IMG/VR virus record: IMGVR_UViG_3300030406_002399
Location: 1-32,764 of that record
Direction: 5' to 3' (one strand)
Length of the DNA stretch: 32,764 nt
From: a virus
Shown here piece by piece: positions 56 to 26,253 of this stretch. The notes below the pieces were generated by a model. It was not told the DNA's origin and ran no database searches. It saw nothing but the letters and a program-made list of their open reading frames with translations. A program made the translations under genes and the position numbers. Every line of letters starts with the position of its first letter. Within the stretch, counting starts at the first letter, position 1.

Positions 56-502
56 ATGGACATACAAAAACTGCGACAAGAAATAGAGGCAGACGAGGGA
101 AACGTAAATGAAATCTATTTGGATCACCTCGGTTTGCCTACTTTTGGGATTGGTCATCTGGTCCGTGATACTGACCCAGAATATGGACAAGATGTAGGAA
201 CTCCTGTAAGTGAAGAGCGTGTAAATAGTTGTTTTGACAGTGATATACAAGGAACTATAACAGACTGTAAGAATTTATTTAATAATTTTGATGATCTGCC
301 AGAAGAGGCACAATTAATTTTATGTAATATGATGTACAATTTGGGGTACACAAGGCTATCAAAATTTAGTAAACTTAGAGCAAGTCTATCTATAATGGAT
401 TTTACTGAGTGTGCAAATCAAATGTATGACTCGAAATGGAGAACACAAGTGCCAAATAGAGCAGAGCGTTTAATTAATAGAATGAAAGCACTAGGAGCGT
501 AA
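56..502 (+). CDS. T4-type phage lysozyme (endolysin)
   Basis: Muramidase that cleaves the glycan strand of peptidoglycan to release progeny. The 148 residues match the length and layout of the T4 lysozyme (glycoside hydrolase 24) family. The N-terminal motif DEG is followed by YLD and TFGIGHL, giving Glu14, Asp23 and Thr29 with the 9- and 6-residue spacing of the T4 catalytic triad Glu11/Asp20/Thr26. The C-terminal stretch QVPNRAERLINRM matches the conserved QTPNRAKRVI region of T4 lysozyme. No signal peptide is visible, so release probably needs a holin, which is not obvious nearby. Start chosen because AGGGAG lies 7 bases before the ATG. It is the first gene seen, one base before the virion-protein genes. 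A second, unrelated wall hydrolase lies at 20907-21356. Confidence 0.93.
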   Translation: MDIQKLRQEIEADEGNVNEIYLDHLGLPTFGIGHLVRDTDPEYGQDVGTPVSEERVNSCFDSDIQGTITDCKNLFNNFDDLPEEAQLILCNMMYNLGYTRLSKFSKLRASLSIMDFTECANQMYDSKWRTQVPNRAERLINRMKALGA

Positions 503-1538: not shown

Positions 1539-1963
1539 TATGCACGGCAGTGCCTCGTGAGGCAATAGATATAGTTTGGGGTGATGTTAGCAGTATGCTT
1601 AACAAAGCGATAGCCACAAGCGCAGGTAAATATCATATTGATGATATTTATCATGAACTAACTAAAGGTTATTATAATCTTTGGTTAATAGTAGATAATA
1701 AAGACGGAGAGAAAGTTATAGCTGCTATTACAACTAGAATAATTTGGTATCCAAACAGAAAAGCAATGGCTATGGATTGGATTGGTGGCAAAAGAATGAT
1801 GGAATGGTTACCAATGGCAATGGAAAAACTTACAGACTTTGCAAAGGATTGTGGCTGTAGTCATTTAGAAGGCTACGGCAGAAAAGCATGGTCTAAAGTT
1901 TTAAAAAAATATAATTGGAAACCAGAATATATAGCTTATAGAATGGAGATTAATAATGGGTAA
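1535..1963 (+). CDS. GNAT-like small protein in the internal virion cassette
   Basis: 142 residues. A central beta-rich part (LWLIVDNKDGEKVIAAITTR) leads to the pattern WIGGKRMMEWLP and then SHLEGYGRKAWSKVLKKYNW, which resembles the core and C-terminal half of GNAT-type acetyltransferase folds found beside phage internal virion genes. A clear acetyl-CoA-binding R/Q-x-x-G-x-G/A loop is not visible, so enzymatic activity is doubtful and a structural role is possible. Position (just before two mid-sized virion proteins and one giant ejection protein) recalls T7 genes 13 to 16, with this one in the place of gp13; that is inference from order, not from sequence identity. It overlaps both neighbours by 4 and 8 bases. 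Confidence 0.6.
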   Translation: MICTAVPREAIDIVWGDVSSMLNKAIATSAGKYHIDDIYHELTKGYYNLWLIVDNKDGEKVIAAITTRIIWYPNRKAMAMDWIGGKRMMEWLPMAMEKLTDFAKDCGCSHLEGYGRKAWSKVLKKYNWKPEYIAYRMEINNG

Positions 1964-2894
1964 AGGCGGATCAAGACCACAACAGCCAACAGAACAAAAT
2001 ATAGTACAAAGCTCATTACCTAAATACTTTGAGCCATATGCTATAGATATGATTAAAAGAGCAGAAGCAGAGTCTAAAAGAGAGTATGCTCCATATGAGG
2101 GTCAAAGACTAGCAGATGAAAATACTGACACTGCAAGGTCTAGAGAAATAGCGAGATCTGTAGCGGAGGGTGGTATACCGGGGCTTGGTCAAGCAACCGC
2201 AGGTACTACAGCTGGTATGGGAAGGGCTATAGAAGGTCTTGGCTTTCAATCACAGGATTTTGGTACAGCGCAGGCTCAACAATATATGTCTCCATATTTA
2301 CAAAACGTATTAGATGTACAGAAAAGGCAAGCTATACTAGATTTTAACAGACAACAGGCAGGCAGAGATGCCGATGCTGTTCAAGCTGGTGCATTTGGTG
2401 GGTCAAGGCAAGCTGTCGCTCAAGCGCTTGCTGGAGAGGGCCTGCAAAGACAATTAGGTGAAATACAGGCAGTCGGTCAACAGAAAGCATTTGAGCAGGC
2501 GCAACAACAGTTTGAGAGAGATAGAGCAGCACAACTGGCTGCTGAAAGGCAGGGCTTATCTGCTGCAGAGAGCTTGTCTGGTCAATCAGCGCAGCTTGCT
2601 GCACTAGGTGAAAAAGCAAGAGCTGGTGATATAGAGTCTGCGCAGTTGTTAGAAAAGATTGCTAAAGATAGACAAGCAAGAGAACAGGCTGGATTAGACT
2701 TGGCATACGAAGATTTTGTTAGACAAAGAGATATGCCAAGAGAAGATCTTACATTCTTGTCATCTATTCTTCGTGGTGTTCCTGTACAGCCATCAACAGA
2801 AACTACTAAATTTCAACAATACAATCCTGTGAAAGACTTATTAGGTACAGGTATAGCTGGATTAGGATTATACAGAGGGTTAACAGGCGGATGA
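1956..2894 (+). CDS. Gln/Ala-rich internal virion protein
   Basis: 312 residues. The middle (about residues 105-235) is a long, strongly helical, Gln/Ala/Glu-rich region with YMSPYLQNVLDVQKRQA, then QAGAFGGSRQAVAQAL, followed by coiled-coil-like QQFERDRAAQLAAERQG. This block is a recognisable signature of an internal/ejection or head-tail protein widespread in marine podovirus-like phages; its biochemical role is unknown. Both ends are more extended: an N-terminal GKGGSRPQQPTEQN tail and a C-terminal glycine-rich LGTGIAGLGLYRGLTGG. The start codon lies within the end of the preceding gene, and its stop overlaps the next gene in ATGATGA, so the cassette is co-translated. Confidence 0.7.
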   Translation: MGKGGSRPQQPTEQNIVQSSLPKYFEPYAIDMIKRAEAESKREYAPYEGQRLADENTDTARSREIARSVAEGGIPGLGQATAGTTAGMGRAIEGLGFQSQDFGTAQAQQYMSPYLQNVLDVQKRQAILDFNRQQAGRDADAVQAGAFGGSRQAVAQALAGEGLQRQLGEIQAVGQQKAFEQAQQQFERDRAAQLAAERQGLSAAESLSGQSAQLAALGEKARAGDIESAQLLEKIAKDRQAREQAGLDLAYEDFVRQRDMPREDLTFLSSILRGVPVQPSTETTKFQQYNPVKDLLGTGIAGLGLYRGLTGG

Positions 2895-3967
2895 TGAATG
2901 TTTTACAAATACAAGATGATTTAAAAAACTTTTCAGAAGATCAGTTAATAAGAGAGATGCAACAGCCAAGTGGCTCTGCCCCTCAGTTTTTAATATTATC
3001 AGAGTTAAATAGACGTAAAAGAGTAAAAGGTGAGTTTGCTGCTAGACAGGCGCAAAATGCCCCTACAGTGGCTGAAGAAGTTGTAGCGGCTGCTGGTGTG
3101 CCACAATCAGGTATGATGGGTATGTCAGAGGCTATGGCTCCTGCAAGCGTGGAATCTGGTGGTATTGGCTCTATGATGCCTAAAACCATGAAAATGGGTG
3201 GTGAAATAGATTCTTATGCAGAAGGTGGCGTTATTAAAGCGCAAGACGGATTGCCTGATGAAGAATCTTATTTAAGTAAGTTCTTCGGTGCATTAAACCC
3301 AGATAAAGAAACAGTAGAAAAAAGAATAGCAGAATCTAATCCTCTTGGTTTTGGCCCTGTTTTAAGAAGCCCCGCTACTGACGCAACTCTTGCTAAATTA
3401 GAAGAAGAAGAAAAGCCTACTAAAGCTACTACTGAGGAAAAAAAAGAAGATACAGACGCAATTATTGATTCTGGAGCTGATACACCAACAACACCTAAGC
3501 CTTTAACTATACAAGAAGAATTATTAAAAAGACAGGCTGGTTTAAAAAAAGACAGAGACTTTGATAGGTATATGGCATTAGCACAAGCTGGATTAGGAAT
3601 ACTTGCATCTGATAAGCCTACTTTAGCAGGTGCTGTAGGAGAGGGCGGTATGAAAGGCCTTGATGCTTTTAGAGAGGCTAATAAAAGATACGAAGAGGGC
3701 TTAACAGATATATTAAATGCTAGAGTAAAACTAGCATCTAAAAACACAGGTCTTTCACAAAAAGATGCAATCTCTGCTATTGGTGTAATAGATAGAACAA
3801 TATCTAATTTGAGAAAAGAAGCAGAAAAATCATTTGATGAAACAGCTTTAGCCAAGATAGAAAGAGATATAGCACAATTAAGATTCCAAAAAAGATCGTT
3901 AATGCCTAGAGCAGGGTTCGGATATTTAGATATAGATGTAAGTGATAGCACAGCTTCTAAAGGTTAA
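2891..3967 (+). CDS. Internal virion/structural protein with AEGG motif
   Basis: 358 residues. The N terminus (IQDDLKNFSEDQLIREMQQ, then PQFLILSELNRRKRVK) is a helical module seen at the start of many marine phage internal virion proteins. A YAEGGVIKAQDG motif near residue 110, an acidic Lys/Glu/Thr linker (about residues 165-200), and a C-terminal helical domain with RQAGLKKDRDFDRYMALAQ and a coiled-coil stretch follow. The helical C-terminal part, followed immediately by the giant protein gene, suggests a role in the ejected core or in scaffolding it, comparable in position to T7 gp15. No enzymatic motif is visible. It overlaps the previous gene by 4 bases. Confidence 0.6.
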   Translation: MMNVLQIQDDLKNFSEDQLIREMQQPSGSAPQFLILSELNRRKRVKGEFAARQAQNAPTVAEEVVAAAGVPQSGMMGMSEAMAPASVESGGIGSMMPKTMKMGGEIDSYAEGGVIKAQDGLPDEESYLSKFFGALNPDKETVEKRIAESNPLGFGPVLRSPATDATLAKLEEEEKPTKATTEEKKEDTDAIIDSGADTPTTPKPLTIQEELLKRQAGLKKDRDFDRYMALAQAGLGILASDKPTLAGAVGEGGMKGLDAFREANKRYEEGLTDILNARVKLASKNTGLSQKDAISAIGVIDRTISNLRKEAEKSFDETALAKIERDIAQLRFQKRSLMPRAGFGYLDIDVSDSTASKG

Positions 3968-3976: not shown

Positions 3977-6900
3977 ATGGGAACATATAACGCTTTTAGC
4001 AGAGTTACTGGTAGAGATTATCCATTTAAGATTGACGGAGACACTCCTACACAAACCGAAATGGCTAGAATCAATAAGATACTGGCACAAGAAGAAGGTT
4101 TATCTACAGAAGCCATAGAAAAAGATGATGGCAATTTATTTACCAAAAATATAGGAAGAGGTATTGATACTATACAGCAGGCTTATGGCTCTGCTATTGA
4201 AGGTATTGGTGAGTCTACAGGTCTTGATTTTCTTAAAAACTATGGTGCGTCTGTAGTAGAGGAAAATAGAAAAGAGCTAGAAGCAAGCCAAGATGCCGCA
4301 AGACAATTAGATGATATAAACAATGTAGGTAGTTTTTTTGATTACGCAGGTGCTACATTAGGGTCACAGGTTCCTCAACTTGGTAGCACACTTGCTGGTT
4401 CTGCGGCAGGTTTCTTAGTTGGTGGTCCTGCAGGAGCGGTTGTCGGTGGATTAGCTGCTAATTTACCTTTTTTCTATGGATCAAACAGAGAAGCGCAAAA
4501 AGAAGAAGTAGCGAAGGGTAATAGAATAGAGGTATCTGAGGGCGCTGCTGCGTTAGCTGCGCTACCACAATCGGTGTTAGATTTAATAGCTGATAGATTT
4601 TTAATAGGTGGATTTACTGGTAAGCTAGTTGGTGGCGGAGGTCTTTTTACTAAGGGCGTAAAAGCAGGAATAAAAGAAATAGGTAGGCGTGGCGCAATTG
4701 GGGCCACAAAAGGTGTGGTGACAGAAGTTCCTACAGAGATAGGACAACAAGTTTTAGAAAGATTGCAGGCTGGTAAAAGCCTAACAAACAAAGAAGCAAT
4801 AGATGAATATAAAGAAGTAGCTGCAGCTGCTGCATTAATTGGTGGTACAGTTCGTTCAACAGGGTCCATAGTTGCAGGAAGTAGAGAAAAAAAGTTAACA
4901 AAAGATGAAGAGTTAAATAGAGATCAAGCTAACGAAGCATTACAAACAGAACAACAAATTAAAAATGCAGAGAATTTTTTAGATAATAAAGCATTGCCTG
5001 CCCCTACAACTTCAACTGCAGAAGTACAAGATGATACAGGTGTTGCAGACTTAGAAACAGAAGACAATAAAGTTATAGATAGAGAAAAGATATCTGCGGC
5101 TGAGTTACCATTTTTCCAAAAATACACCAAAGCATTAGACGCTGTTAAAAAGGCAGGCAAGGTAAACCCTACAATAGTTAGAAATGCTATTAGAGAAGAA
5201 GGCAGAAAGATACCTAAAGTTGAGGTTGATGGCATCATAGAAGAAATGTCAAAGCGTGGTGAGATAAAACCTGTTGGCAAAAATAAATTTGAAGTTATGC
5301 AAGATGACCTAGATACCTATAAAGCTAGAGCATCAGCATTAAAGAAAAAAGCAGATCAAATAATAGATGAAAAGAAAGATATACAAAAATCTATTGACGA
5401 AGCCCCTCCCATACCTGCAGTAGATGCAGATCCCGTTACATTAGAAACAAACAGACAAAGGCTTGAGCAGAAGAATCTTGAGTATGATAATGTTGTTAAA
5501 CAGGCATTATTATTAGAAAGAGAGGCGGCTAAGTATATAAAAGAAAGATATGGCACCACCGATGTTAAGGGGACCACAGACCAAAGGGTTGATGTAGAAA
5601 ATCCTGCAAAAGCTAGTTCTATAATTCAAGATCTTACAGCTAAAAGAAGTTTTGATGTAGCAGATAAAAGAAGACTTACAGATAACTACATGAGCAAAAG
5701 GGATGTAGTTATGAAGAAGCTATCTGATAGAATGAAAGCTATTGGATTAGATGACGTTGTTTTACGTCAAGAAAATATAATAACAGGCAATCCAAATGAG
5801 TCCCCTAAAGAAGCAGTGCAGAAAGGTCAGATTTACGAAGGATACTTTCAAACAGAAGAAGGCAAGCCTACTATAGCTTTAGCTATGGAGATTTATGACC
5901 CTAATCTTACTGACGCAGAGTTAGAGTCAAAGATTGGTTCTGTTTTAAACCATGAGGTTATACATGCTATAAAGCGTATGGGTTTATTCACAGCTGAAGA
6001 GTATCAAACACTTACTAATGCTGTTTCTAAAAGAAAATATGTAATTATGGAAGATGGAAAACCATCTACTAGACAATATACATACTTAGACAGAGCTATA
6101 AGAATGAACCCTGATCTTACATCTGAAGGCCAGATAGAAGAAGCTATTGCCGAGATGTACAGAGCATACGCTGATGGCAAGATAATTGTTGCTGGTCAGC
6201 CTAAGACCCTACTACAAAAAATTACTAAGTTTATTAAGTCAATATTTGGCGCTCATGAAGATGCTGGATTTACAGATGTAGATCAAATATTTGAGAATAT
6301 AGGCACTACAGATCAAGAAAAACAAATAGGCAGAAGAAAAAGAGACCCAGAAAGTGTTATGGAAAGGCAAAATAGCCTTCTTAATACACAAGCAAGTCTA
6401 TCAGATCAGCTTACTGGTGATGTTAAGCCTAAAGTTAGACCAAGCAGAACCATACCCCAAAGGGTTAAGACAGCTTATAAGTTATTTGTACAAAGAGCAG
6501 ATGGGCAATTATTACCATTATTTGTTAATGCAGCAGATCCTATACCTGTTGGTCAGTTTATAGAGGCTGATTTTCCTACTGCTACATTTAGGGGCAGACC
6601 AATTACTGGTAAGGGTCCAAATAAAAAACTTGGTACAGAATCTTTTTATGTGCCAACAAAAGGAGCAGAGAGAACTAAAGGCGAAGCTAAAAGAGATACT
6701 GGCACAATGGTATCTATATCTTCAGAACAAGAAAGACAAAAACTTATTGCAGAGGGTTATATAACTGAAAAAACAGGAAGAACTGAACTTAATCCGTATG
6801 GTCAAGTTAGGGCGGTTGCTGCACGACCCGGGTTCCACGCAAGCGTTAAAGCGTATGCGCTGCATTTAGGCCCAGAAGATCTGCAAGTTACAAAAGAAGA

Positions 6901-9900
6901 AGCAAAAATATTAACTGATTTAGGTATGGTTATTAAGCCTAAAGAGGGAAAACTTTTTGTAAAGCGTAGAGCGGAAGATCAGGTGTTTGCCAAAGTGTCA
7001 ATGGCTGATGATGTAGATTATCAAGAGCAAATAAAAGATTCAGGCAGAACAGACATAAATGACAGAGTACCATTAGGTGGTAGCTATGTTTATACAGATG
7101 GACAAGCTAATCAAGATTGGTTAGTTGGCGGTGACATGCGTATTGATAGAGTTTTATCAAGGCAAGAAGCGCAAGCCATAGCACAAAGTCAAGGCGTAAG
7201 AGATTTACCGTACAAGGCAGAAGTAGAAGAGATATTAGGCAGAAAACTATCTAGTGAGTTGCCTGCTGATACAAAGTTTTCTGTTAAAAAGGCAGTTACC
7301 GATGATGTTGCAACAGATGATTTATTAATTGTTACGCACAATATTAAACCTGAAGCATTAGTTAGGGCAGATAAACTGGGTGGTATACCTATGCCATCAA
7401 TAGCAATAACTAAAGCAAGTTTAGGCTTTGAAGGATTTGGTGATATTTCTTTGATTGGTAATGCTAAAATGGCAACACCAAGTAGCGTGGATCAAATTTA
7501 TAAAAGAGATGCTTACACTACAAGGGCGCCAAGGCCCGAAATGGAAGCAACAGATGATGCACTAAAATATATAGAAAATTTAAGAGATAAATTAGAAAGT
7601 GAGTTAATTCAAAAGTATGATTTAGAACCAGTTGGTGAAACAAAAGATGCTTTGATTAATGCATTTGGAAGAAATAAACCACCAAGAGCTAGTTTATCAG
7701 ATTATAGAGAAGAATTAACTGAAGATATTATGTCATTAAATCAAGACTATGATCCCTTTACTTTTGCCGAAATATATTTAGATCAAATGACCCCAATATT
7801 AAGATTAAAATATCTTAATGATGTTGGGGCTATAGATAAAGTATTTCAAGAAGAATTTAAGTCACCATCTTTTCTTCCTGAAGAAGGAAATGAACTTATA
7901 GGCAGAATATTAAATGCAGCAACTGGGTTTGGATTTGATTTAAGAAATGAAATGCAATTTGAGTATGATGAAAAATCTTTAAGAGATTGGCTTTTAACAG
8001 AAAGAGAAAATGCTATAGAAGCTGTTAACAAGCCATATGCAAATAAAAAGATTCCTTTAGTTTTGGAGCGTGTTGCAGATTTTGAAACAGGTGTGAGAAA
8101 AACAGCTACATTAGATAATATTGTATCAATAATGAGAAAAAGGCGAGGCCCAGCACAAGAGAAAGGTTTTGAGCTTGCACTTACATTAGGTCCATTAGCA
8201 GCTAGGGTAACTCCTAGATTTAAAACATTACAAGAAATAAAAAATAGTAGAGATAGAATAAACTATAAAGAGTTCGATAAAGCGAAGGGTGATGTACAAA
8301 GAGCGGCCACTGTATCAGAAGAAGCCTTATATAATTTTCTTAATAATGATCTTATGTTACAGCGAATAGTTAGAAATAATCCTGATGGATATACTGTTGA
8401 TGATGTTGTTAATATTAATGGTATACCTAAAAAAATGCTTGCTAACATATTAGAAAAAAAATCAGACTTTAGATATTCTATTTCACAAGTAATTACAGAT
8501 GAAAGAAAGCAAAAATTTATTCAGAGATTAGAAGAAATACAAAGAGGAGCTATTCCTAAGCCTATTATAGATTTAATAAATGAAACTGGCAGAAGAATAA
8601 AAGCTATGCCAACAGAATATTTTGAAATTAAACCTTTAAGGGCGGTAAAATTAAATGAATTTGTTGGAGCTTTGATACCTGAAGAAACATCTGCACAAGT
8701 TAGACAATTATTAAAAAGAAATATGCCTGATGGTAAGATAGTTGAGTATGGAGAAAGCAGAACAGAAAAATTGATGGAGTTTAAAGATGTTATGTTTTCA
8801 AGAAAACAACTTGATCCTAAGTTGCTTAACCAAAGTATAATTAAAAATTATAAGACTGATGATAATGGTAACATATTAACAAAAGCACAATTAGGTGATG
8901 AAAATCCATTTGTTAGATCAGCACCTGCAGGTACAGTGAAGCTAGAAGATGCATTACAAAAGCTACAAGATGAAAGAGGTGGTGCTGTCTATGATATTAA
9001 TAATGCAGAGGATAGAGAGGCTGTATCACAAATAATTGCTGAAGAAGCTAGGGTTGCTATGGAGCGTGATGATAGCGCAATAGGATGGTATGACCGTACA
9101 CTTAAACTAGCTAAGAAAGTTATAGGTGTTGCACACCCAGAGGTTGATAAATCTAATCCTGCATATAACCCAGATAATGAAGCTGCGTTTGATTTTGCAT
9201 TATCCATAACATCTAACGGATTAGCTATTATTCCTAACTTTAAATTAGCTACAGAGCAATACGAGCATTGGGTTGAGAACGGCACATTTAAAGAAGAGGG
9301 TAAAGATGCTGGTATGAGAAAGGCTTTCTTTGCTTACAATACTATGAAAGAAACTATGTCTGATGCAGAGATAACAGAGTTTCTTAACTCAGACTTCACA
9401 ATGGGTGAACTTAAAGCATTACCAATAATAAAAGAACTTGGAATTACTGTATCTTCAACAGAGACAGTTAACACAATTGTTAAGGGTTCACAAATATTTG
9501 GATCTAAAATAGGTGGTGCGTTCTATCAAAATGTTAGAGGCAACTATGATGCATTGACTATGGATAGATGGTTTATGAGATTCTTTAATAGAATAACAGG
9601 CAATCCATTTAAGGTTATAGGCGAGAATGTATTAAGTGATAATAAAGCTAGATTGTTAAGGGCTGTACAAACAGCAGAAGCACAAAGAAATAATTTTCTT
9701 ATCAATGCTATAGAAGATGCAAAAGATGAAGCAAACTTGGATATTATTAATGATGCTACAGCTATTGAACTAGCTGCTGCTTTAGACAGGCAATATCAAG
9801 TAGCATTTTCTAAAACACCTGTAGAGTTAAGAGAACAAAAAACAGAGCTTGATTTAGCCGCTCAATCTTTGAACAGAAACGCAAATACACAAGTTGTAGA

Positions 9901-12900
9901 GACGCCTCGTAGTGGAGGGGACCGTGCAATGATGCGTCTCGTGATTAATAGAGCGAGACAAATATTAGCTGAGAACGGTATAAATATTAGTAATGCAGAT
10001 ATACAGGCATTGTTATGGTATGCAGAAAAAGATTTATTGGATGCATATGGTGTTAGAAAAGGTCAGGGACTAAAGAATGACTATGTAGATGGCGCTATAG
10101 CAGTATTAAGAGAGAGAGGTATAGAAAATGAAACGATCACAGAAGCACTCCCCCAGTCAGAGAGAAACAGACTCGATAGTGACACAAATACCGAGAGAAA
10201 GATTGAAGGAGTTTATAACCCAAATGATATCGTTACAGAAGAAAAAGCAGACACAGAACAAGAAGTAGAAGAATATGATGTATCTGAGGGTTTAACAGAA
10301 CAAGAGAAATTAGAACAACAAAAACTACAAGATGAGTTTGATAAGTTTAACAGGGTTATGTCTGCAGCTGTTAATCCAAACAAGTTAATTAACGTACCTT
10401 TAGCAGATCCAACTGAAAGTATATTTGGCAATAGATATTTTTACGGCACTGTTAAAGGCCCGCAGGGAAGAATGACCAATGTGGTTTTAACAGAGGGGTT
10501 TCACGAATATAAAGGAACAGATCAGGCAGGCAACCCCATTTATAGTGGTGAGGGATTAGCACATATTCTAGGTGAGCGCGGTAGAAAACCAAGCAGAAGA
10601 GATGAGTTATTAGTTCCCACAGAAGAAGGTAATTGGATAAAATATAAAGATGTTGAAACAGCTATATACGAAACATTAAAAGCATATAAGTATAAGAATG
10701 GTGTAAGGCAAAAATTTGACGGTAAATCAACTGATCTTGTTTTGTTATGGGATAAAGCAAGAATAGCTGGTAAAAACAAAGCTAATAAAACATTAGCACT
10801 AGTTTTAAAATATAAAAAAGATACATATTCACAACCAGTTTATGTAGTCAATACAACATTTTTAGAAGAATCTGATAGGCGTTTAGGAACGCAGCGTGTT
10901 AACTCAGTGGCCACCATGCCAACTTCGGATACGACACCACAATCAAATCAAATAGTTGAAGATATAGAAAAGAAAAGACTTAATATTCAATATAATAACT
11001 TAGCACCAGTTTTAGGTAGGATTGTATCTAAGGTTACATTTGGAAAAATAGAAAAAGAAAAAGCACAAAAAGAAGCAGAAAAAATATTAATTAAGTTTCA
11101 AGATGCTTTATTACCTGTAGGCGCTATGTTGGATGAGCTAAAGAAGAAGGGTTTTACAATAGCTGATGCTTTAGATACATATATGCAGGAAGAGTTATTT
11201 CATGGTGTAGCAGGAGCTAAAGTTGAGAAAATACAAAAAGAATTATTTGAACCATTAGCTGACACTATAAAAACTATAAATATATCAGAGCCTAAATTAA
11301 ATGAACTTAAAGGTATTAGTAACTTTTATATTAGGGCATCAGAGAGATATATCGATAAAAGATTGGCAGTTGCAGATGCCATCCTGTATGCAAGGCATGC
11401 CAAAGAAAGAAACGACTACATAAATAAAAATAAAGCTGGTGACAAGACAAAAGGCTCTGGTATGGCGAATAGTGAAGCTGATGCCATAATAAAATGGCTA
11501 TCCACGCTTGATTCTACTGAAGGTGGCAAGTTAGCTAAGATAGAGAATATATCTAGACAGATAATACAAAGCACTAACAGGCAAAGATTAGATAGTGGTT
11601 TGATATCAAAAGACTTATTAGATAATAACTTTAATTCTAAAGTATATAAATATTATGTGCCACTTAGAGGTGACATCGAATCTGAAGTTGAAACACAAGA
11701 AGATTTGATGGGCAAAACAAGAATGACCACCAATTTGTTTGGCGCAGCGGGTAAGGAAGACCGGTCCGCATTAGGACAAACCGATTATGCAGAAAATATA
11801 ATTGCATCTATGATGGCACAAAACCAAAGATCAATTGATCGTGGTGAGCGTAATAAAGTTGGTAGATCATTTTTAAATTTAATGAGAGGCATGGAGGAGC
11901 AACCTGATGGCACTTTTGCTATTAACGATCAATTAAGAGAACATATGAGTAAGATAGCTGTTTTCTTAGATGATATGCCTAAACAAGCAAGAGATGCACT
12001 AGATCCAAATACAATATTAACGCTAAAAGAAAATGGTGCAGAAGTTAAGGTTCACTTTAAAGATCAAAGAATAGGTCGTGCAATGAAGGGTCACATGACT
12101 CCAGAAAGCATGGGCAAGTTTACTAAAGCGCTTGGTAAAATGAATAAGTATTTATCTAGTATTAATACAACATATAACCCATCATTTGTTATTCCAAACT
12201 TCGCCAGAGACTTGCAAGCAGCTGGTGTGAACATGCAACAGTACGATCAAAAAGGGATGACGAAAGAAGTATTAACCAGTGCGTTACCAGCAGTAAAAGG
12301 AATAGTTGCTGTATTAAGAGGTGGTCAAGAAACCTTTTGGTCTAAAGAATATAATAAGTTTGTTGAAGCTGGTGGTAAAAATGCCACAAATCAGATGGGC
12401 GATCTTCAGGATCAGATTAATAATATTGGAGATATATTAGGAGATATATCTGATACAGGAATAAAGAAGAAGCTAGGTTTAAATAAAAATGGATTTACAA
12501 GAAACTTATTAAAAATATTAGATGACTATAACACAGCAGTTGAGAATGGTGTCAGAGTTGCAACATTCACTTCGTTAGTTAAGCGTGGCGTTACACCGGC
12601 CCGGGCTGCACAAGCGGCAAGGAACGTAACCGTGAACTTTGCGAAGGGTGGAGAAAATAAGACCCTAATGAACTCTTGGTATTTATTTTATAATGCATCA
12701 CTTCAGGGTTCAATGGCGCTTATTAATGCTGCCGCGAAGTCAAAGAAGGTGAGAAAAGTTTGGGGTGGTTTGGTTATCTACGGCATCATGCAAGATCAGA
12801 TCAATTCACTATTATCTGGCGATGAAGATGAAGATGGAATTAAAGATTATGATGAATTACCTAGATACGTTTTAGAGCATAATTTAATACTACCTACCTT

Positions 12901-13810
12901 TGGACTGGCAGATGATAAGTTTATAATGATACCTTTATCTTATGGTCTTAACTTGGCAGTTAACTTTGGTAGATCATTAAGTAGATCAGCTAGGGGAGAA
13001 TACACTGCAGGAGAAGCCAGTAGGTCTATCTTCGGCACTGCGTTTGAGAGTATTAGTCCGTTTGGTGGATTTGATAACATTTACAACCTTACAGCACCTA
13101 CAGTACTTGATCCTTTTGTCAGTTTGGCTATCAACGAGGATTATAAGGGAGATCCTATATACAAAGAAAGTCCTACATTCTCATCACGACCAACACCTGA
13201 TAGTCAAGCATACTGGTCTAATACTAGTTCCATAGCAAAAGGAATTGCAGACTCAATAAACAGTATTACTGGTGGAGATGCAGTAGAGAGTGGTTATATA
13301 GACTTTAGCCCTAATACATTAGAGTTCTGGTTTGATTACTTCGCTGGTGGCACGGGAGCTTTTGTACAAAGATCTTTTGAAGCTCCTGTCGCTATTTACG
13401 ATGCTTTGCAAGGGGACTTTGAAGGCGATATAATGAGAGCAGTTCCACTAGTTAGAAAGGTAGTAATAAGTCCTAGTGAAAGAGAAGATGTAGGAAACTA
13501 TTTAGAGAACAGACAAGACCTGTACACGATACTAGCTAGAATAGACCTAGCAAAGAAGTCAGGAGATGGATCAACTGTTAGAAGCCTATTCACAGAGTAC
13601 AGAGATCAGTTAAGGATAGCTGGAAGAATAAAGGCTATTGATAATGCAAGGAATAGATTATTACGGCAGATTAAAGAGATAGAAGCTAACCCACGAATAC
13701 CAGAAAAAACAAAGTTAAACCTAAAGAGAATCAGAAGACAAAAGATAAATGATCTGATGAAGCAAGGTCTTATATTAATGAGATCGGCAGGTTTTAAAAA
13801 GGCAGGATAA
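3977..13810 (+). CDS. Giant polyvalent ejection-type protein with zinc-peptidase motif
   Basis: 3277 residues, about 30% of the window and without a stop. Visible parts: a helical Gly/Ala-rich, membrane-active-looking region (about 115-300); HEVIH at residues 659-663 followed some 50 residues on by EEAIAEMYRAYADG, the HExxH...E layout of the metallopeptidase domain of phage/plasmid polyvalent proteins; a region from GFHASVKAYALHLG (about 952) to VGGDMRIDRVL; a region from VTHNIKPEALVRADKLGG (about 1119) that recurs in large polyvalent proteins; a helical domain around WFMRFFN (about 1865); a GLAHILGERG segment (about 2194) reminiscent of the nuclease-like domains at the ends of MuF-type proteins; and a conserved C-terminal block after about 2950. 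By position and size it probably is ejected with the DNA, as T7 gp16 or N4 virion RNA polymerase are. No RNA polymerase or lytic transglycosylase motif was recognised. Start follows the AAGG within the dyad at 3963-3974. Confidence 0.85.
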   Translation: MGTYNAFSRVTGRDYPFKIDGDTPTQTEMARINKILAQEEGLSTEAIEKDDGNLFTKNIGRGIDTIQQAYGSAIEGIGESTGLDFLKNYGASVVEENRKELEASQDAARQLDDINNVGSFFDYAGATLGSQVPQLGSTLAGSAAGFLVGGPAGAVVGGLAANLPFFYGSNREAQKEEVAKGNRIEVSEGAAALAALPQSVLDLIADRFLIGGFTGKLVGGGGLFTKGVKAGIKEIGRRGAIGATKGVVTEVPTEIGQQVLERLQAGKSLTNKEAIDEYKEVAAAAALIGGTVRSTGSIVAGSREKKLTKDEELNRDQANEALQTEQQIKNAENFLDNKALPAPTTSTAEVQDDTGVADLETEDNKVIDREKISAAELPFFQKYTKALDAVKKAGKVNPTIVRNAIREEGRKIPKVEVDGIIEEMSKRGEIKPVGKNKFEVMQDDLDTYKARASALKKKADQIIDEKKDIQKSIDEAPPIPAVDADPVTLETNRQRLEQKNLEYDNVVKQALLLEREAAKYIKERYGTTDVKGTTDQRVDVENPAKASSIIQDLTAKRSFDVADKRRLTDNYMSKRDVVMKKLSDRMKAIGLDDVVLRQENIITGNPNESPKEAVQKGQIYEGYFQTEEGKPTIALAMEIYDPNLTDAELESKIGSVLNHEVIHAIKRMGLFTAEEYQTLTNAVSKRKYVIMEDGKPSTRQYTYLDRAIRMNPDLTSEGQIEEAIAEMYRAYADGKIIVAGQPKTLLQKITKFIKSIFGAHEDAGFTDVDQIFENIGTTDQEKQIGRRKRDPESVMERQNSLLNTQASLSDQLTGDVKPKVRPSRTIPQRVKTAYKLFVQRADGQLLPLFVNAADPIPVGQFIEADFPTATFRGRPITGKGPNKKLGTESFYVPTKGAERTKGEAKRDTGTMVSISSEQERQKLIAEGYITEKTGRTELNPYGQVRAVAARPGFHASVKAYALHLGPEDLQVTKEEAKILTDLGMVIKPKEGKLFVKRRAEDQVFAKVSMADDVDYQEQIKDSGRTDINDRVPLGGSYVYTDGQANQDWLVGGDMRIDRVLSRQEAQAIAQSQGVRDLPYKAEVEEILGRKLSSELPADTKFSVKKAVTDDVATDDLLIVTHNIKPEALVRADKLGGIPMPSIAITKASLGFEGFGDISLIGNAKMATPSSVDQIYKRDAYTTRAPRPEMEATDDALKYIENLRDKLESELIQKYDLEPVGETKDALINAFGRNKPPRASLSDYREELTEDIMSLNQDYDPFTFAEIYLDQMTPILRLKYLNDVGAIDKVFQEEFKSPSFLPEEGNELIGRILNAATGFGFDLRNEMQFEYDEKSLRDWLLTERENAIEAVNKPYANKKIPLVLERVADFETGVRKTATLDNIVSIMRKRRGPAQEKGFELALTLGPLAARVTPRFKTLQEIKNSRDRINYKEFDKAKGDVQRAATVSEEALYNFLNNDLMLQRIVRNNPDGYTVDDVVNINGIPKKMLANILEKKSDFRYSISQVITDERKQKFIQRLEEIQRGAIPKPIIDLINETGRRIKAMPTEYFEIKPLRAVKLNEFVGALIPEETSAQVRQLLKRNMPDGKIVEYGESRTEKLMEFKDVMFSRKQLDPKLLNQSIIKNYKTDDNGNILTKAQLGDENPFVRSAPAGTVKLEDALQKLQDERGGAVYDINNAEDREAVSQIIAEEARVAMERDDSAIGWYDRTLKLAKKVIGVAHPEVDKSNPAYNPDNEAAFDFALSITSNGLAIIPNFKLATEQYEHWVENGTFKEEGKDAGMRKAFFAYNTMKETMSDAEITEFLNSDFTMGELKALPIIKELGITVSSTETVNTIVKGSQIFGSKIGGAFYQNVRGNYDALTMDRWFMRFFNRITGNPFKVIGENVLSDNKARLLRAVQTAEAQRNNFLINAIEDAKDEANLDIINDATAIELAAALDRQYQVAFSKTPVELREQKTELDLAAQSLNRNANTQVVETPRSGGDRAMMRLVINRARQILAENGINISNADIQALLWYAEKDLLDAYGVRKGQGLKNDYVDGAIAVLRERGIENETITEALPQSERNRLDSDTNTERKIEGVYNPNDIVTEEKADTEQEVEEYDVSEGLTEQEKLEQQKLQDEFDKFNRVMSAAVNPNKLINVPLADPTESIFGNRYFYGTVKGPQGRMTNVVLTEGFHEYKGTDQAGNPIYSGEGLAHILGERGRKPSRRDELLVPTEEGNWIKYKDVETAIYETLKAYKYKNGVRQKFDGKSTDLVLLWDKARIAGKNKANKTLALVLKYKKDTYSQPVYVVNTTFLEESDRRLGTQRVNSVATMPTSDTTPQSNQIVEDIEKKRLNIQYNNLAPVLGRIVSKVTFGKIEKEKAQKEAEKILIKFQDALLPVGAMLDELKKKGFTIADALDTYMQEELFHGVAGAKVEKIQKELFEPLADTIKTINISEPKLNELKGISNFYIRASERYIDKRLAVADAILYARHAKERNDYINKNKAGDKTKGSGMANSEADAIIKWLSTLDSTEGGKLAKIENISRQIIQSTNRQRLDSGLISKDLLDNNFNSKVYKYYVPLRGDIESEVETQEDLMGKTRMTTNLFGAAGKEDRSALGQTDYAENIIASMMAQNQRSIDRGERNKVGRSFLNLMRGMEEQPDGTFAINDQLREHMSKIAVFLDDMPKQARDALDPNTILTLKENGAEVKVHFKDQRIGRAMKGHMTPESMGKFTKALGKMNKYLSSINTTYNPSFVIPNFARDLQAAGVNMQQYDQKGMTKEVLTSALPAVKGIVAVLRGGQETFWSKEYNKFVEAGGKNATNQMGDLQDQINNIGDILGDISDTGIKKKLGLNKNGFTRNLLKILDDYNTAVENGVRVATFTSLVKRGVTPARAAQAARNVTVNFAKGGENKTLMNSWYLFYNASLQGSMALINAAAKSKKVRKVWGGLVIYGIMQDQINSLLSGDEDEDGIKDYDELPRYVLEHNLILPTFGLADDKFIMIPLSYGLNLAVNFGRSLSRSARGEYTAGEASRSIFGTAFESISPFGGFDNIYNLTAPTVLDPFVSLAINEDYKGDPIYKESPTFSSRPTPDSQAYWSNTSSIAKGIADSINSITGGDAVESGYIDFSPNTLEFWFDYFAGGTGAFVQRSFEAPVAIYDALQGDFEGDIMRAVPLVRKVVISPSEREDVGNYLENRQDLYTILARIDLAKKSGDGSTVRSLFTEYRDQLRIAGRIKAIDNARNRLLRQIKEIEANPRIPEKTKLNLKRIRRQKINDLMKQGLILMRSAGFKKAG

Positions 13811-24027: not shown

Positions 24028-25158
24028 TTAAGCAACTTTTAGATAAGTGGTATTTCCAATAGGTGCTTCATCTTGGTTAACGTCAGTCGATACCCAGAGT
24101 AAAGGGAAGTCAACTTGCTTTGGATAATCCCAGATACCCAGATCAGTAAAGTAGATCATGCTATCCACATTAAGATTATTCAATCTGATATAATCAAATA
24201 CTGGCATGACACATGTACCACCACGACCATTGCACTTGATATCCTCAATAATATCTCCATGCTCATACCTCTTTACAGTTTGTATTATGGCATCACATGT
24301 AATGACTGTTATTGAGTTAGGCTTGATCTCCTCAGACAATGCATTCAGCTCTCCTAGAAAATGTTTAAGCTCTTTATTGCTAACACTCCCAGAGCTATCA
24401 ACACCTATGACAATATCTCCAACACCAACTTTATTTGATACTGGAGTTATCACTCTATTGATATCCCATTGTCTTTTGTTGGGTCTACGATAAGAATAAC
24501 CCTCTGGCTGATCTCCAACAACATGTCTTCTTAAAACGTCAGTCCAGTCAACTTGAGATCTCTTCATCTCATTGATTATCTGCTTTACACTTGATGGTAA
24601 TTTGCCAATAGCTTTTGCAGTATTGACTGCCATAACTGTTTCAGCATTAATCTTTGCGACCTCTTGTTTTATCTGGTCTTCAGACATGCCCTCTTGAGGA
24701 ATAACCATACCCCATGACTGAGGTTTAGGTTTCTCTTCAGCTTTTGAGTTCAAGATATCATATATCTTTTCAGCTCTCATGCCCTTGTATTGCTTATCTA
24801 ATAAACCACCTTTAGGCATCTGGGTTAATCCACTTTCTACAAGAGAATAATTAATGGCATAATCACAAGCTATATTCCATAGCTCTGCATCTCTTTTGCC
24901 ATGTCTTAAATGGTGCAGTAAAACTCTATGCAAACACTCATGACATAAAACAAAGTCAAGCTCTGCTTCAGATAAATTATCTGTAAACTCTTCATTGTAG
25001 AAAATGTTAGTCCCATCAGTTGCCATTGTAGGTATATCATTCTTAACAACTAAAGGCATTTTATAGAGGACTGAAGCATAAAACCCCAGTCCATTCTTAT
25101 CTTTATCGACCATAAGTCTAACCTTAGATCTAACCAATTTACGTTGTAAATCGTGCAT
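24028..25158 (-). CDS. DUF2201-type metallopeptidase-like / VWA protein
   Basis: 376 residues in two recognisable parts. N-terminal (about 1-135): a zinc-peptidase-like domain with CHECLHRVLLHH (His73, Glu74, His77 as HExxH) and LWNIACDYAIN, whose Asp99 is a likely third ligand. C-terminal (about 235-376): a von Willebrand A fold with a complete metal-ion-dependent adhesion site, DSSGS (Asp254, Ser256, Ser258), Thr315 in GRGGT and Asp339 in YFTDLG. The architecture matches DUF2201/COG3864 proteins encoded beside MoxR ATPases. Here the MoxR gene is immediately upstream and co-oriented. Probable joint role: ATP-driven, metal-dependent remodelling or maturation of a target. The start is preceded by TTAACTTTTAGAGGAG. 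Confidence 0.88.
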   Translation of the reverse strand: MHDLQRKLVRSKVRLMVDKDKNGLGFYASVLYKMPLVVKNDIPTMATDGTNIFYNEEFTDNLSEAELDFVLCHECLHRVLLHHLRHGKRDAELWNIACDYAINYSLVESGLTQMPKGGLLDKQYKGMRAEKIYDILNSKAEEKPKPQSWGMVIPQEGMSEDQIKQEVAKINAETVMAVNTAKAIGKLPSSVKQIINEMKRSQVDWTDVLRRHVVGDQPEGYSYRRPNKRQWDINRVITPVSNKVGVGDIVIGVDSSGSVSNKELKHFLGELNALSEEIKPNSITVITCDAIIQTVKRYEHGDIIEDIKCNGRGGTCVMPVFDYIRLNNLNVDSMIYFTDLGIWDYPKQVDFPLLWVSTDVNQDEAPIGNTTYLKVA

Positions 25159-25187: not shown

Positions 25188-25201
25188 ATTTAAGTTACAC
25201 C
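25180..25201 (-). terminator. Hairpin over the MoxR stop codon
   Basis: GGTGTAAC (25180-25187) and GTTACACC (25194-25201) form a perfect 8-bp stem with a 6-base loop that spans the MoxR stop codon. On the minus strand it is followed by TTAACTTTT, so partial termination between MoxR and the VWA gene is possible and could set their ratio. Confidence 0.45.
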
Positions 25202-26253
25202 AAATATTTTCCATTGCCAGACTTACCAGCCCATAAACGAACATCTTTATTTTGTTTAAGGCTTTCATCTCTGCTCAATGCATCTTTAAGAAAGTATGCT
25301 TGAAATTCCTCGTTAGGTAATCTCTGAACATACTGCAATATGTTACCCATATTCTTATCAGTAGCTCTCATTGATAGAGCTGAACATAAAGCAAACATGA
25401 TTGGTGGATCTTCAACTACTGGAGTGTTCATTGGATCAGCAATCAACTTGTCTATGTCTGGACATTTTTCGTGAATGTCCATATGGGTTTTAAGATTGGC
25501 ATATGCACTAGCTCCAATTTGTCCAGAGATAGCTTCAGCCATTGCTTCTTCGTCTAGCTCCCATTTAAGCATAGTTGCCACCCTCTCATGAGATCTAGGA
25601 GTAGGATAAGAATTTACACCTTTTTGGAATTGATGCAAAAACTCTGGTTGGAAACGTAACCAAGAGATGATCCTATGATCTACACCAGTCTTAGCAAAAT
25701 AAGAACAAGTGTCATCTAGGTTAGCTTCAATCTCTAGGAATGAAAGTCTATCAACTAAATGACTTGGCATGGCATTAGTTCCTGCCTTGTCAGATAATTT
25801 GTTACCACATGACATTATGTAACAATGTGATCTATCAATGTGGTATTCTCCAACTCTATATTCATCACATATTTGAGCATAGATATTCATGTTAAGAACT
25901 GGAGCTTGAGGGAGTTCATCAAATACATATAAGATGCCCTTATATCCCTGAGCTTTCAGCTCTTGCCATTCTTCGTCAGTAACAATCCAGTCTGGTCTAA
26001 GCACTTTCATACTGTCCCCATCTGGCATTCTTAAACCACCAATGTCAGTAGGCTCAAATTGTGCCAGAGAAACAATAACTAAATGTAGTTTCATTTCTTC
26101 TGCAACTTGCCTACACAATGCAGTTTTTCCTATACCCATAGAGCCTTCAAGGTGTAGGGATATAGGCTTTTTAGATTTGTCGTTCTCATAGTCAAAATTA
26201 AAACTATGATTGATTGCTTCGATAAATATTTTTTTTGCTATAGATAATCTCAT
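25195..26253 (-). CDS. MoxR-type AAA+ ATPase
   Basis: 352 residues. Walker A GSMGIGKT (Lys43, Thr44), GGL loop after FEPTDIGG, Walker B LYVFDE (Asp112, Glu113), sensor-1 Asn151 in SCGN, and an arginine-finger region HLVDRL (Arg169) place it in the MoxR/AAA_5-like group. MoxR ATPases form hexamers that, with VWA-domain partners, load metals or remodel protein complexes (as NorQ-NorD, CoxD-CoxE, RavA-ViaA). The VWA partner is the next gene downstream, 36 bases away. AGGAG is about ten bases before the ATG. What a phage does with the pair is unknown. Confidence 0.9.
   Translation of the reverse strand: MRLSIAKKIFIEAINHSFNFDYENDKSKKPISLHLEGSMGIGKTALCRQVAEEMKLHLVIVSLAQFEPTDIGGLRMPDGDSMKVLRPDWIVTDEEWQELKAQGYKGILYVFDELPQAPVLNMNIYAQICDEYRVGEYHIDRSHCYIMSCGNKLSDKAGTNAMPSHLVDRLSFLEIEANLDDTCSYFAKTGVDHRIISWLRFQPEFLHQFQKGVNSYPTPRSHERVATMLKWELDEEAMAEAISGQIGASAYANLKTHMDIHEKCPDIDKLIADPMNTPVVEDPPIMFALCSALSMRATDKNMGNILQYVQRLPNEEFQAYFLKDALSRDESLKQNKDVRLWAGKSGNGKYLV

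What the first reader, a model, noticed from the sequence alone, without database searches (positions are those of the whole stretch)
3977..13810. 3277-residue multidomain protein with a zinc-peptidase motif
Without a recognised polymerase, a protein of this size next to internal virion proteins is probably ejected into the host. It combines HEVIH (659-663) with a later Glu-rich helix, several regions found in polyvalent proteins, a membrane-active-looking N-terminal part and a conserved C-terminal block. Such proteins can carry many anti-host activities at once. Most of its length has no assigned function.
Basis: partly seen in the sequence, partly recalled or inferred. Interest (0 to 1): 0.7.

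Follow-up and report, generated by a model that had tools for sequence, protein, structure and literature searches.

The report
Phage-carried giant protein with swappable cargo
A marine phage makes one giant protein, probably carried in the virus particle and pushed into the host cell, built from a fixed frame with a zinc protease plus interchangeable effector modules separated by a recurring three-residue signature that may mark where the protein cuts itself apart.

Summary
The ORF is real (3977-13810, 3277 aa) and HEVIH lies at 659-663. The protein is a phage-type polyvalent protein (LPD38; PBECR5 nuclease-like module; zincin-fold metallopeptidase), the last gene of a virion/ejection cassette. 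All 72 relatives with enough upstream DNA have the same ejection gene before it, and a giant of the related Bcep22-like group was found in virions of phage JC1 by mass spectrometry (paper). New here: relatives share a fixed frame (N-terminal part, peptidase, LPD38 C-terminus) around a variable cargo stretch. In one close relative the PBECR5 module is missing almost exactly between two junction sites. Junctions carry a recurrent tripeptide, [KR][FY]S: 6.3-fold denser outside than inside shared domains, 72% of distinct sites within 10 aa of a module edge (null 48%), replicated in held-out loci, conserved at protein rather than codon level. I propose it marks self-processing sites; cleavage is untested. 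A glycosylase-like fold and a second BECR-like nuclease are tentative. The class is known (Iyer 2017); this is a new variant with a testable processing signal.

The parts
3977..13810 (+). Giant polyvalent protein gene, 3277 aa
   Evidence: ORF; LPD38 and PBECR5
4106..4945 (+). N-terminal virion-associated part, aa 44-323, with glycine-rich hydrophobic stretch aa 143-161
   Evidence: phrog_6958 E 1.1e-22; hydropathy; found in 44 family ORFs
5117..5290 (+). Possible winged helix, aa 381-438 (below curated cut-off)
   Evidence: MCM_C 22.9 bits against a cut-off of 27
5654..6376 (+). Zincin-like metallopeptidase, aa 560-800
5951..5965 (+). HEVIH, aa 659-663
6137..6154 (+). EEAIAE, aa 721-726, putative third zinc ligand in the second helix
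   Evidence: E722 and E726 kept in 57 of 57 aligned peptidase rows
6455..7261 (+). Variable stretch, module A, aa 827-1095; contains phrog_30118 match 995-1083
   Evidence: present in 11 family ORFs
7274..7285 (+). Junction signature KFSV, aa 1100-1103, in a low-confidence (probably disordered) linker
7271..7594 (+). PBECR5 nuclease-like match, aa 1099-1206 (partial); the whole module aa ~1100-1605 is missing in L003
   Evidence: deletion
8792..8803 (+). Junction signature MFSR, aa 1606-1609, at the edge of a low-confidence linker
8945..10180 (+). core1, aa 1657-2068: helical domain, possible DNA-glycosylase-like (DUF2419/PUGT) fold
10349..10900 (+). Possible second BECR-like nuclease domain, aa 2125-2308, invariant H2196 and T2293
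11069..12826 (+). Conserved C-terminal block (core2), aa 2365-2950
12842..13393 (+). LPD38, aa 2956-3139
   Evidence: 11 of 11 members of A6
1956..2894 (+). DNA ejection protein homologue upstream, kept in 72 of 72 loci
   Evidence: phrog_4287 E 8.9e-13
2891..3967 (+). Gene directly upstream of the giant, no family match, homologue in 72 of 72 loci
56..502 (+). Phage lysozyme-like gene at the start of the cassette

Best explanation
This is a phage polyvalent protein used as a delivery frame. A fixed N-terminal virion part, a zincin metallopeptidase and a fixed LPD38-containing C-terminus are packaged in the virion and ejected with the DNA; between them lie exchangeable modules (in this phage module A, a PBECR5 nuclease-like module, core1 and a probable second BECR-like domain). 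I propose that the peptidase cuts the chain at the linkers marked by [KR][FY]S (looser [KR][FYLM]S), in the virion or after entry, and frees the modules to act on the host or its defences. Shown here: ORF, architecture, conservation of the catalytic residues, synteny, non-random placement of the tripeptide. Inferred: packaging and ejection (about 0.8), an active zinc peptidase (about 0.85), self-processing (about 0.45), the tripeptide as the recognised site (about 0.35).
For: Architecture with fixed ends and variable middle. Peptidase residues kept in 57 of 57 aligned rows and 39 of 39 in relatives found without the peptidase pattern; zincin structures among the best PDB matches: lethal factor/Certhrax Z 6.2-7.0, acel_2062 Z 6.0, PPEP-3 Z 5.8, SPRTN Z 5.8, ArdC Z 5.2. 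Ejection gene upstream in 72 of 72 loci; JC1 gp69 in virions (PMC9144972). Tripeptide in 38 non-redundant proteins: 102 against 57.6 +- 6.8 shuffled; 87 outside and 15 inside shared domains; 58 distinct sites, 72% within 10 aa of a module edge against 48% +- 6, 0 of 300 nulls; held-out 33 loci: 77 outside, 13 inside, edge 0.79 against 0.48; held-out 15 loci: 40 outside, 2 inside. 42 distinct 9-mers encode 87 sites, all six Ser codons used. L003 lacks PBECR5 between KFSV and MFSR; two further junction-to-junction losses, none for four permuted patterns. In the window both junction sites lie in or beside low-pLDDT linkers. In the divergent L196 with the same frame: 4 against 1.0 expected, one just after the peptidase.
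Against: No cleavage has been seen. The tripeptide was first noticed by eye in a few family members, so the test on all 38 is partly post hoc (the held-out runs are the guard, but held-out loci are homologous). Its overall density (0.91 per 1000) equals that in other ORFs of the same loci (0.92): only the location is special. 27 of 38 proteins have no strict form within 60 aa after the peptidase. RYSI at 1499 in the window lies in an ordered loop and is not kept in L002, L013 or L014: a chance match. Relatives that share only the distant peptidase (L198, L199, L201) show no excess (0-1 against about 1); all seven genome loci together 6 against 7.5. Zincin Z values are under 8, which the tool calls middling. 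P1 DdrB, a processed relative in concept, has no clear site at the expected size.
Confidence: 0.5

Rival explanations
1. The peptidase is itself an effector that cuts host proteins; the giant protein stays whole, and the tripeptide is only a structural start of each module or a feature of its linkers.
For: Iyer et al. list this as an alternative and state that N4 virion RNA polymerase, which has such a peptidase, is packaged unprocessed (PMC5512222, passages). The tripeptide often travels with the downstream module: several downstream clusters have many upstream partners.
Against: 87 sites fall into 36 unrelated downstream and 46 unrelated upstream clusters, so one shared domain start cannot explain them; in L066 the tripeptide stays when the downstream module differs.
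Confidence: 0.22
2. The junctions are cut, but by another protease (a phage prohead protease or a host protease).
For: Prohead proteases process internal head proteins, for example P1 DarA is believed to be processed (PMC9024508, passages). No dependence on the cis peptidase has been shown here.
Against: The excess is absent in relatives with the same C-terminus but without this peptidase: 3 against 7.6 in 8 IMG/VR proteins, 8 against 6.9 in 5 cultured phages. This set is small and differs in lineage too.
Confidence: 0.15
3. The giant is mainly an ejection-machine component in the position of the last internal virion protein; enzymatic modules are incidental or decayed.
For: Its place after ejection genes; in Pelagibacter phage Lederberg a 1254-aa protein with the C-terminal homology sits between internal virion protein genes and the tail fibre gene. 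core2 and LPD38 are the invariant part.
Against: Peptidase, core1 and second BECR-like catalytic-type residues are invariant where the domains occur, so they are under selection.
Confidence: 0.1
4. The tripeptide is a footprint of DNA-level recombination that shuffles modules.
For: Modules are exchanged at these places.
Against: 42 different 9-mers at 87 sites, with both TCN and AGY serine codons.
Confidence: 0.03

Closest known systems
Phage-type polyvalent proteins (Iyer et al. 2017, PMC5512222; passages read)
   Same: Zincin peptidase, PBECR nuclease, LPD38 (named there as phage-only), disparate domains in one chain, virion gene context; the authors already propose self-processing by the peptidase.
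   Different: Here one fixed frame with a variable middle is followed across 38 non-redundant relatives, and a recurrent junction tripeptide is found. In the passages I read and in term searches of that paper ('cleavage site', 'linker', 'glycosylase') no processing motif is given.
Giant DarB-like proteins of Bcep22-like phages (JC1 gp69, BcepMigl gp69)
   Same: C-terminal block homologous (BcepMigl 23.5% over 80% of the 917-aa query, E 6e-39); late position; JC1 gp69 virion-associated.
   Different: No recognisable copy of this peptidase was looked for by profile; HEAFH at 3601 lies elsewhere; different other domains.
P1 DdrB
   Same: Possible metallopeptidase (record note), HExxH at 872, virion protein (PMC9024508), said to be processed to 76 kDa (PMC5512222).
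   Different: 995 aa, peptidase at the C-terminus, no clear junction tripeptide at the expected size.
N4 virion RNA polymerase
   Same: Giant ejected protein with a peptidase domain next to a HExxH (PMC5512222).
   Different: Carries an RNA polymerase and is packaged whole; no polymerase match here.

Membership tests
Polyvalent proteins (phage type) | Two or more domains of disparate activity in one chain | tested here: met
   PBECR5 and LPD38 above curated cut-offs, zincin-like peptidase
Polyvalent proteins (phage type) | Encoded with virion/packaging genes | tested here: met
Polyvalent proteins (phage type) | Transferred into the host with the DNA | not testable with these tools
   Only context and the JC1 virion result of a related giant
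Zincin-like metallopeptidases | HExxH helix followed by a helix with a Glu ligand | tested here: met
   H659 E660 H663 E722 E726 in 57 of 57 aligned peptidase rows; helices in the model
Zincin-like metallopeptidases | Fold | tested here: inconclusive
   Several zincin families lead the list but at Z 5.2-7.0; no sequence match in PDB
PBECR5 | Profile match over the whole domain | tested here: inconclusive
   E 3.6e-20, but profile positions 2-107 of 239 only; catalytic residues not assigned
Second BECR-like nuclease (aa 2125-2308) | BECR fold with N-terminal-helix His and C-terminal Thr/Ser | tested here: inconclusive
   BrnT 3u97 Z 4.3, rmsd 3.2, 77 of 77 aligned; H2196 33 of 33 and T2293 32 of 32 ungapped rows; no Pfam match
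DNA-glycosylase / DUF2419 superfamily (core1) | Fold and catalytic Asp | tested here: inconclusive
   DUF2419 Z 8.4 (rmsd 4.1, 213 aligned) and 8.3, PUGT Z 7.0; D1863 47 of 47 ungapped rows; no sequence match in PDB; likeness of the GPKIG...TMDRW stretch to the HhH-GPD motif is recalled, not computed
N4-type virion RNA polymerase | RNA polymerase domain | tested here: not met
   No polymerase family in Pfam or PHROGs at E up to 1

The most novel reading that the evidence does not exclude
The tripeptide [KR][FY]S is the shared self-processing signal of a family of virion-delivered polyproteins: any module flanked by it is released by the cis metallopeptidase, so that phages can exchange effectors by swapping signal-to-signal cassettes.
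Probability: 0.33. Interest if true: 0.75.

Novelty: new variant of a known kind. Interest (0 to 1): 0.52.

Why it matters
Self-processing of polyvalent proteins was proposed in 2017 without a recognised cut site that I could find in the passages read or in my searches. A candidate site makes the idea directly testable, gives domain borders for a large set of unannotated marine phage proteins, and offers a way to cut them into testable effector modules. If wrong, the module map itself still helps annotation.

Tried and rejected
Megablast of 22 kb of the window against cultured phages: no match. Pfam on the stretch 2144-2361: none. PDB sequence profiles of the peptidase (A2), the C-terminus (A6) and core1 (A7): no meaningful match. 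Foldseek alone on both models: nothing at E up to 0.001. PBECR5-module scan of viral contigs found only the two nearest relatives. P1 DdrB as an outside test of the tripeptide: inconclusive, sites at 574 and 756 against an expected ~700 aa. PADLOC on 37 variable stretches: one weak match. A profile comparison of core1 with the SPQxDW domain of L125-like relatives found no homology (E 0.28); by eye both hold a K-I-x-x-F-Y-x-N...T-x-D pattern, which I do not count. RYSI at 1499: rejected as a junction.

Rows left out: structure alignment A4 used 59 of the 60 rows listed (L121 dropped), A5 52 of 54 (L121, L184 dropped); A8 37 of 38 (L102 has no core2 match). 'Shared domains' are N, peptidase, core1, second BECR-like, core2 and LPD38, without core1 spans over 520 aa (L068). 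The 72 loci are not de-replicated. In one search, 58 rows cover the site; L009, which does not contain the peptidase, is the one that fails.

Full report
What is there. The ORF at 3977-13810 encodes 3277 aa with a single HExxH, HEVIH at 659-663. Pfam finds PBECR5 (1099-1206) and LPD38 (2956-3139), and a weak winged helix at 381-438 below its cut-off; PHROGs finds a virion structural family at 44-323 and three families of unknown function over 2362-3252. The window is a virus record of 32,764 bases, possibly a fragment. Around it lie a lysozyme-like gene, a DNA-ejection-protein homologue, primase-helicase, exonuclease, terminase and portal genes. The terminase is nearest to Pelagibacter phage HTVC027P (54%), which hints at a SAR11-type host but does not show it.

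Relatives. A scan with the C-terminal 917 aa gave 44 viral-contig loci; scans with core1 plus second BECR-like (A1) and with the peptidase (A2) confirmed 293 and 199 candidate stretches, of which 80 each were kept. In cultured phages the C-terminal block is found in 131 records, all under 60% identity: Vibrio 101, Burkholderia 8, Escherichia 7, Stx 6, Bacteroides 3 and others.

Architecture. BLAST and profile searches show fixed ends and a variable middle: N-terminal part, peptidase, then 77 to over 1000 aa that differ between relatives, then core1 and/or a second BECR-like domain in many, then core2 and LPD38 (118 ORFs with LPD38). L003 matches the window at 1-1107 and 1573-3277 only: its PBECR5 module is gone, with SSDLPIDEKSVDRKGIAFSRKQL where the window has SSELPADTKFSV...MFSRKQL. 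Over 37 relatives the stretch between peptidase and core2 matches DUF7178 (12), Phage_L5_gp82 (6), PBECR5 (2), zeta-toxin-type kinase (2), ART-PolyVal (1) and a ParB-like family (1); most of it matches nothing. Another relative, L044, has ART-PolyVal and a different HExxH region.

Peptidase. In the 59-row alignment, H659, E660, H663, E722 and E726 are kept in all 57 rows that contain the peptidase. One scan used an HExxH-bearing pattern, so I also counted the 42 complete ORFs over 2000 aa from scans that did not: 39 have this peptidase, all 39 with HExxH; L052, L044 and L110 lack it but have another HExxH. The model of aa 499-1620 has mean pLDDT 62.3, but the peptidase core is above 85. The best PDB matches are zincins of several kinds, at Z 5.2-7.0. 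I take it as a zincin; substrate unknown.

Other domains. The model of aa 1641-2365 has mean pLDDT 84.6. Its first part matches the queuine salvage enzymes DUF2419 (Z 8.4, rmsd 4.1, 213 aligned; Z 8.3) and phage PaMx11 PUGT (Z 7.0); DUF2419 is described as similar to DNA glycosylases (PMC9406330, passages). Its second part matches the RNase toxin BrnT over its whole length (Z 4.3, rmsd 3.2, 77 of 77), with invariant H2196 and T2293, as Iyer et al. describe for BECR RNases (His in the N-terminal helix, C-terminal Thr/Ser). All these are tentative.

The junction tripeptide. Reading junctions in the window and in L019, L022, L034 and L040, I noticed [KR][FY]S, and then tested it. In 38 non-redundant proteins (111,969 aa) it occurs 102 times against 57.6 +- 6.8 in shuffles (58.2 +- 7.8). 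87 sites lie outside and 15 inside the shared domains, a 6.3-fold difference in density; eleven control patterns range from 0.67 to 1.8, except S[FY][KR] at 4.06, which is largely one homologous QSFKDV site. The 87 sites fall into 36 downstream and 46 upstream similarity clusters, 58 distinct pairs. 72% of the 58 lie within 10 aa of a module edge (end of a BLAST match between relatives), against 48% +- 6 for random positions in the same regions, 0 of 300 nulls reaching it; among the controls, [KR]LS (3 of 300) and the overlapping [FY]S[KR] (9 of 300) also lean to edges. In the 33 loci from later scans: 77 outside, 13 inside, edge 0.79 against 0.48; in the 15 found by the peptidase scan: 40 outside, 2 inside. 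A weak wider pattern is x-[KR]-[FY]-S-x-[RVLI]-[PSQ]-[ILV]-x-P. Codons at the sites are mixed (42 distinct 9-mers), so selection acts on the protein. Junction-to-junction module losses: L066 against L054/L019, L176 against L150, and L003 against the window with the looser form; none for four permuted patterns.

Results against it. Overall density equals that in 175 other ORFs of the same loci (0.91 and 0.92 per 1000); only 11 of 38 proteins have the strict form within 60 aa after the peptidase, though looser forms are common there; relatives with only a distant peptidase show none. Proteins with the C-terminus but without this peptidase show no excess: 3 against 7.6 in 8 viral-contig proteins, 8 against 6.9 in 5 cultured phages. 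That fits a link to this peptidase but also a simple difference of lineage.

Delivery. The ejection-protein homologue and the next gene lie upstream in 72 of 72 loci. JC1 gp69, a giant of the Bcep22-like group whose member BcepMigl gp69 is a C-terminal homologue, was found in virions (PMC9144972, passages). Ejection itself is inferred.

Mechanism proposed. Packaged and ejected as one chain; the peptidase cuts at tripeptide linkers and frees modules. Iyer et al. proposed such processing in general, and point to P1 DdrB and to N4 virion RNA polymerase as processed and unprocessed examples (PMC5512222, passages). What I add is the frame-and-cargo map and a candidate site. My searches for a published motif (and terms in PMC5512222) found none; the library lacks most subscription journals.

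Noticed in passing
window 24028-25158 (-) and 25195-26253 (-): A DUF2201 metallopeptidase plus VWA-like protein next to an AAA-type ATPase, like a MoxR/VWA pair (pair name recalled), in a phage early region.
   Followed up: no
L141 5129-9301 and 9542-13717: The giant is split into two ORFs, one with the peptidase and one with core2 plus LPD38: natural split or assembly error.
   Followed up: no
L034 6119-7771: A cargo stretch that looks by eye like a RelA/SpoT-type domain; Pfam gives no match.
   Followed up: partly
L193 6775-10539 (Pelagibacter phage Lederberg): A 1254-aa protein with homology to the C-terminal block sits between internal virion protein genes and the tail fibre gene, hinting that the C-terminal block is an ejection component.
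   Followed up: partly
L125, L157, L144, L181, L158: Relatives without core1 have another domain (SPQxDW, DUF7178-like by count) in the same region, with a K-I-x-x-F-Y-x-N...T-x-D pattern like that of core1 by eye; profile comparison did not join them.
   Followed up: partly
L196: A contig filed under a Peregrinibacteria MAG codes for a divergent member of the family with four junction tripeptides.
   Followed up: partly
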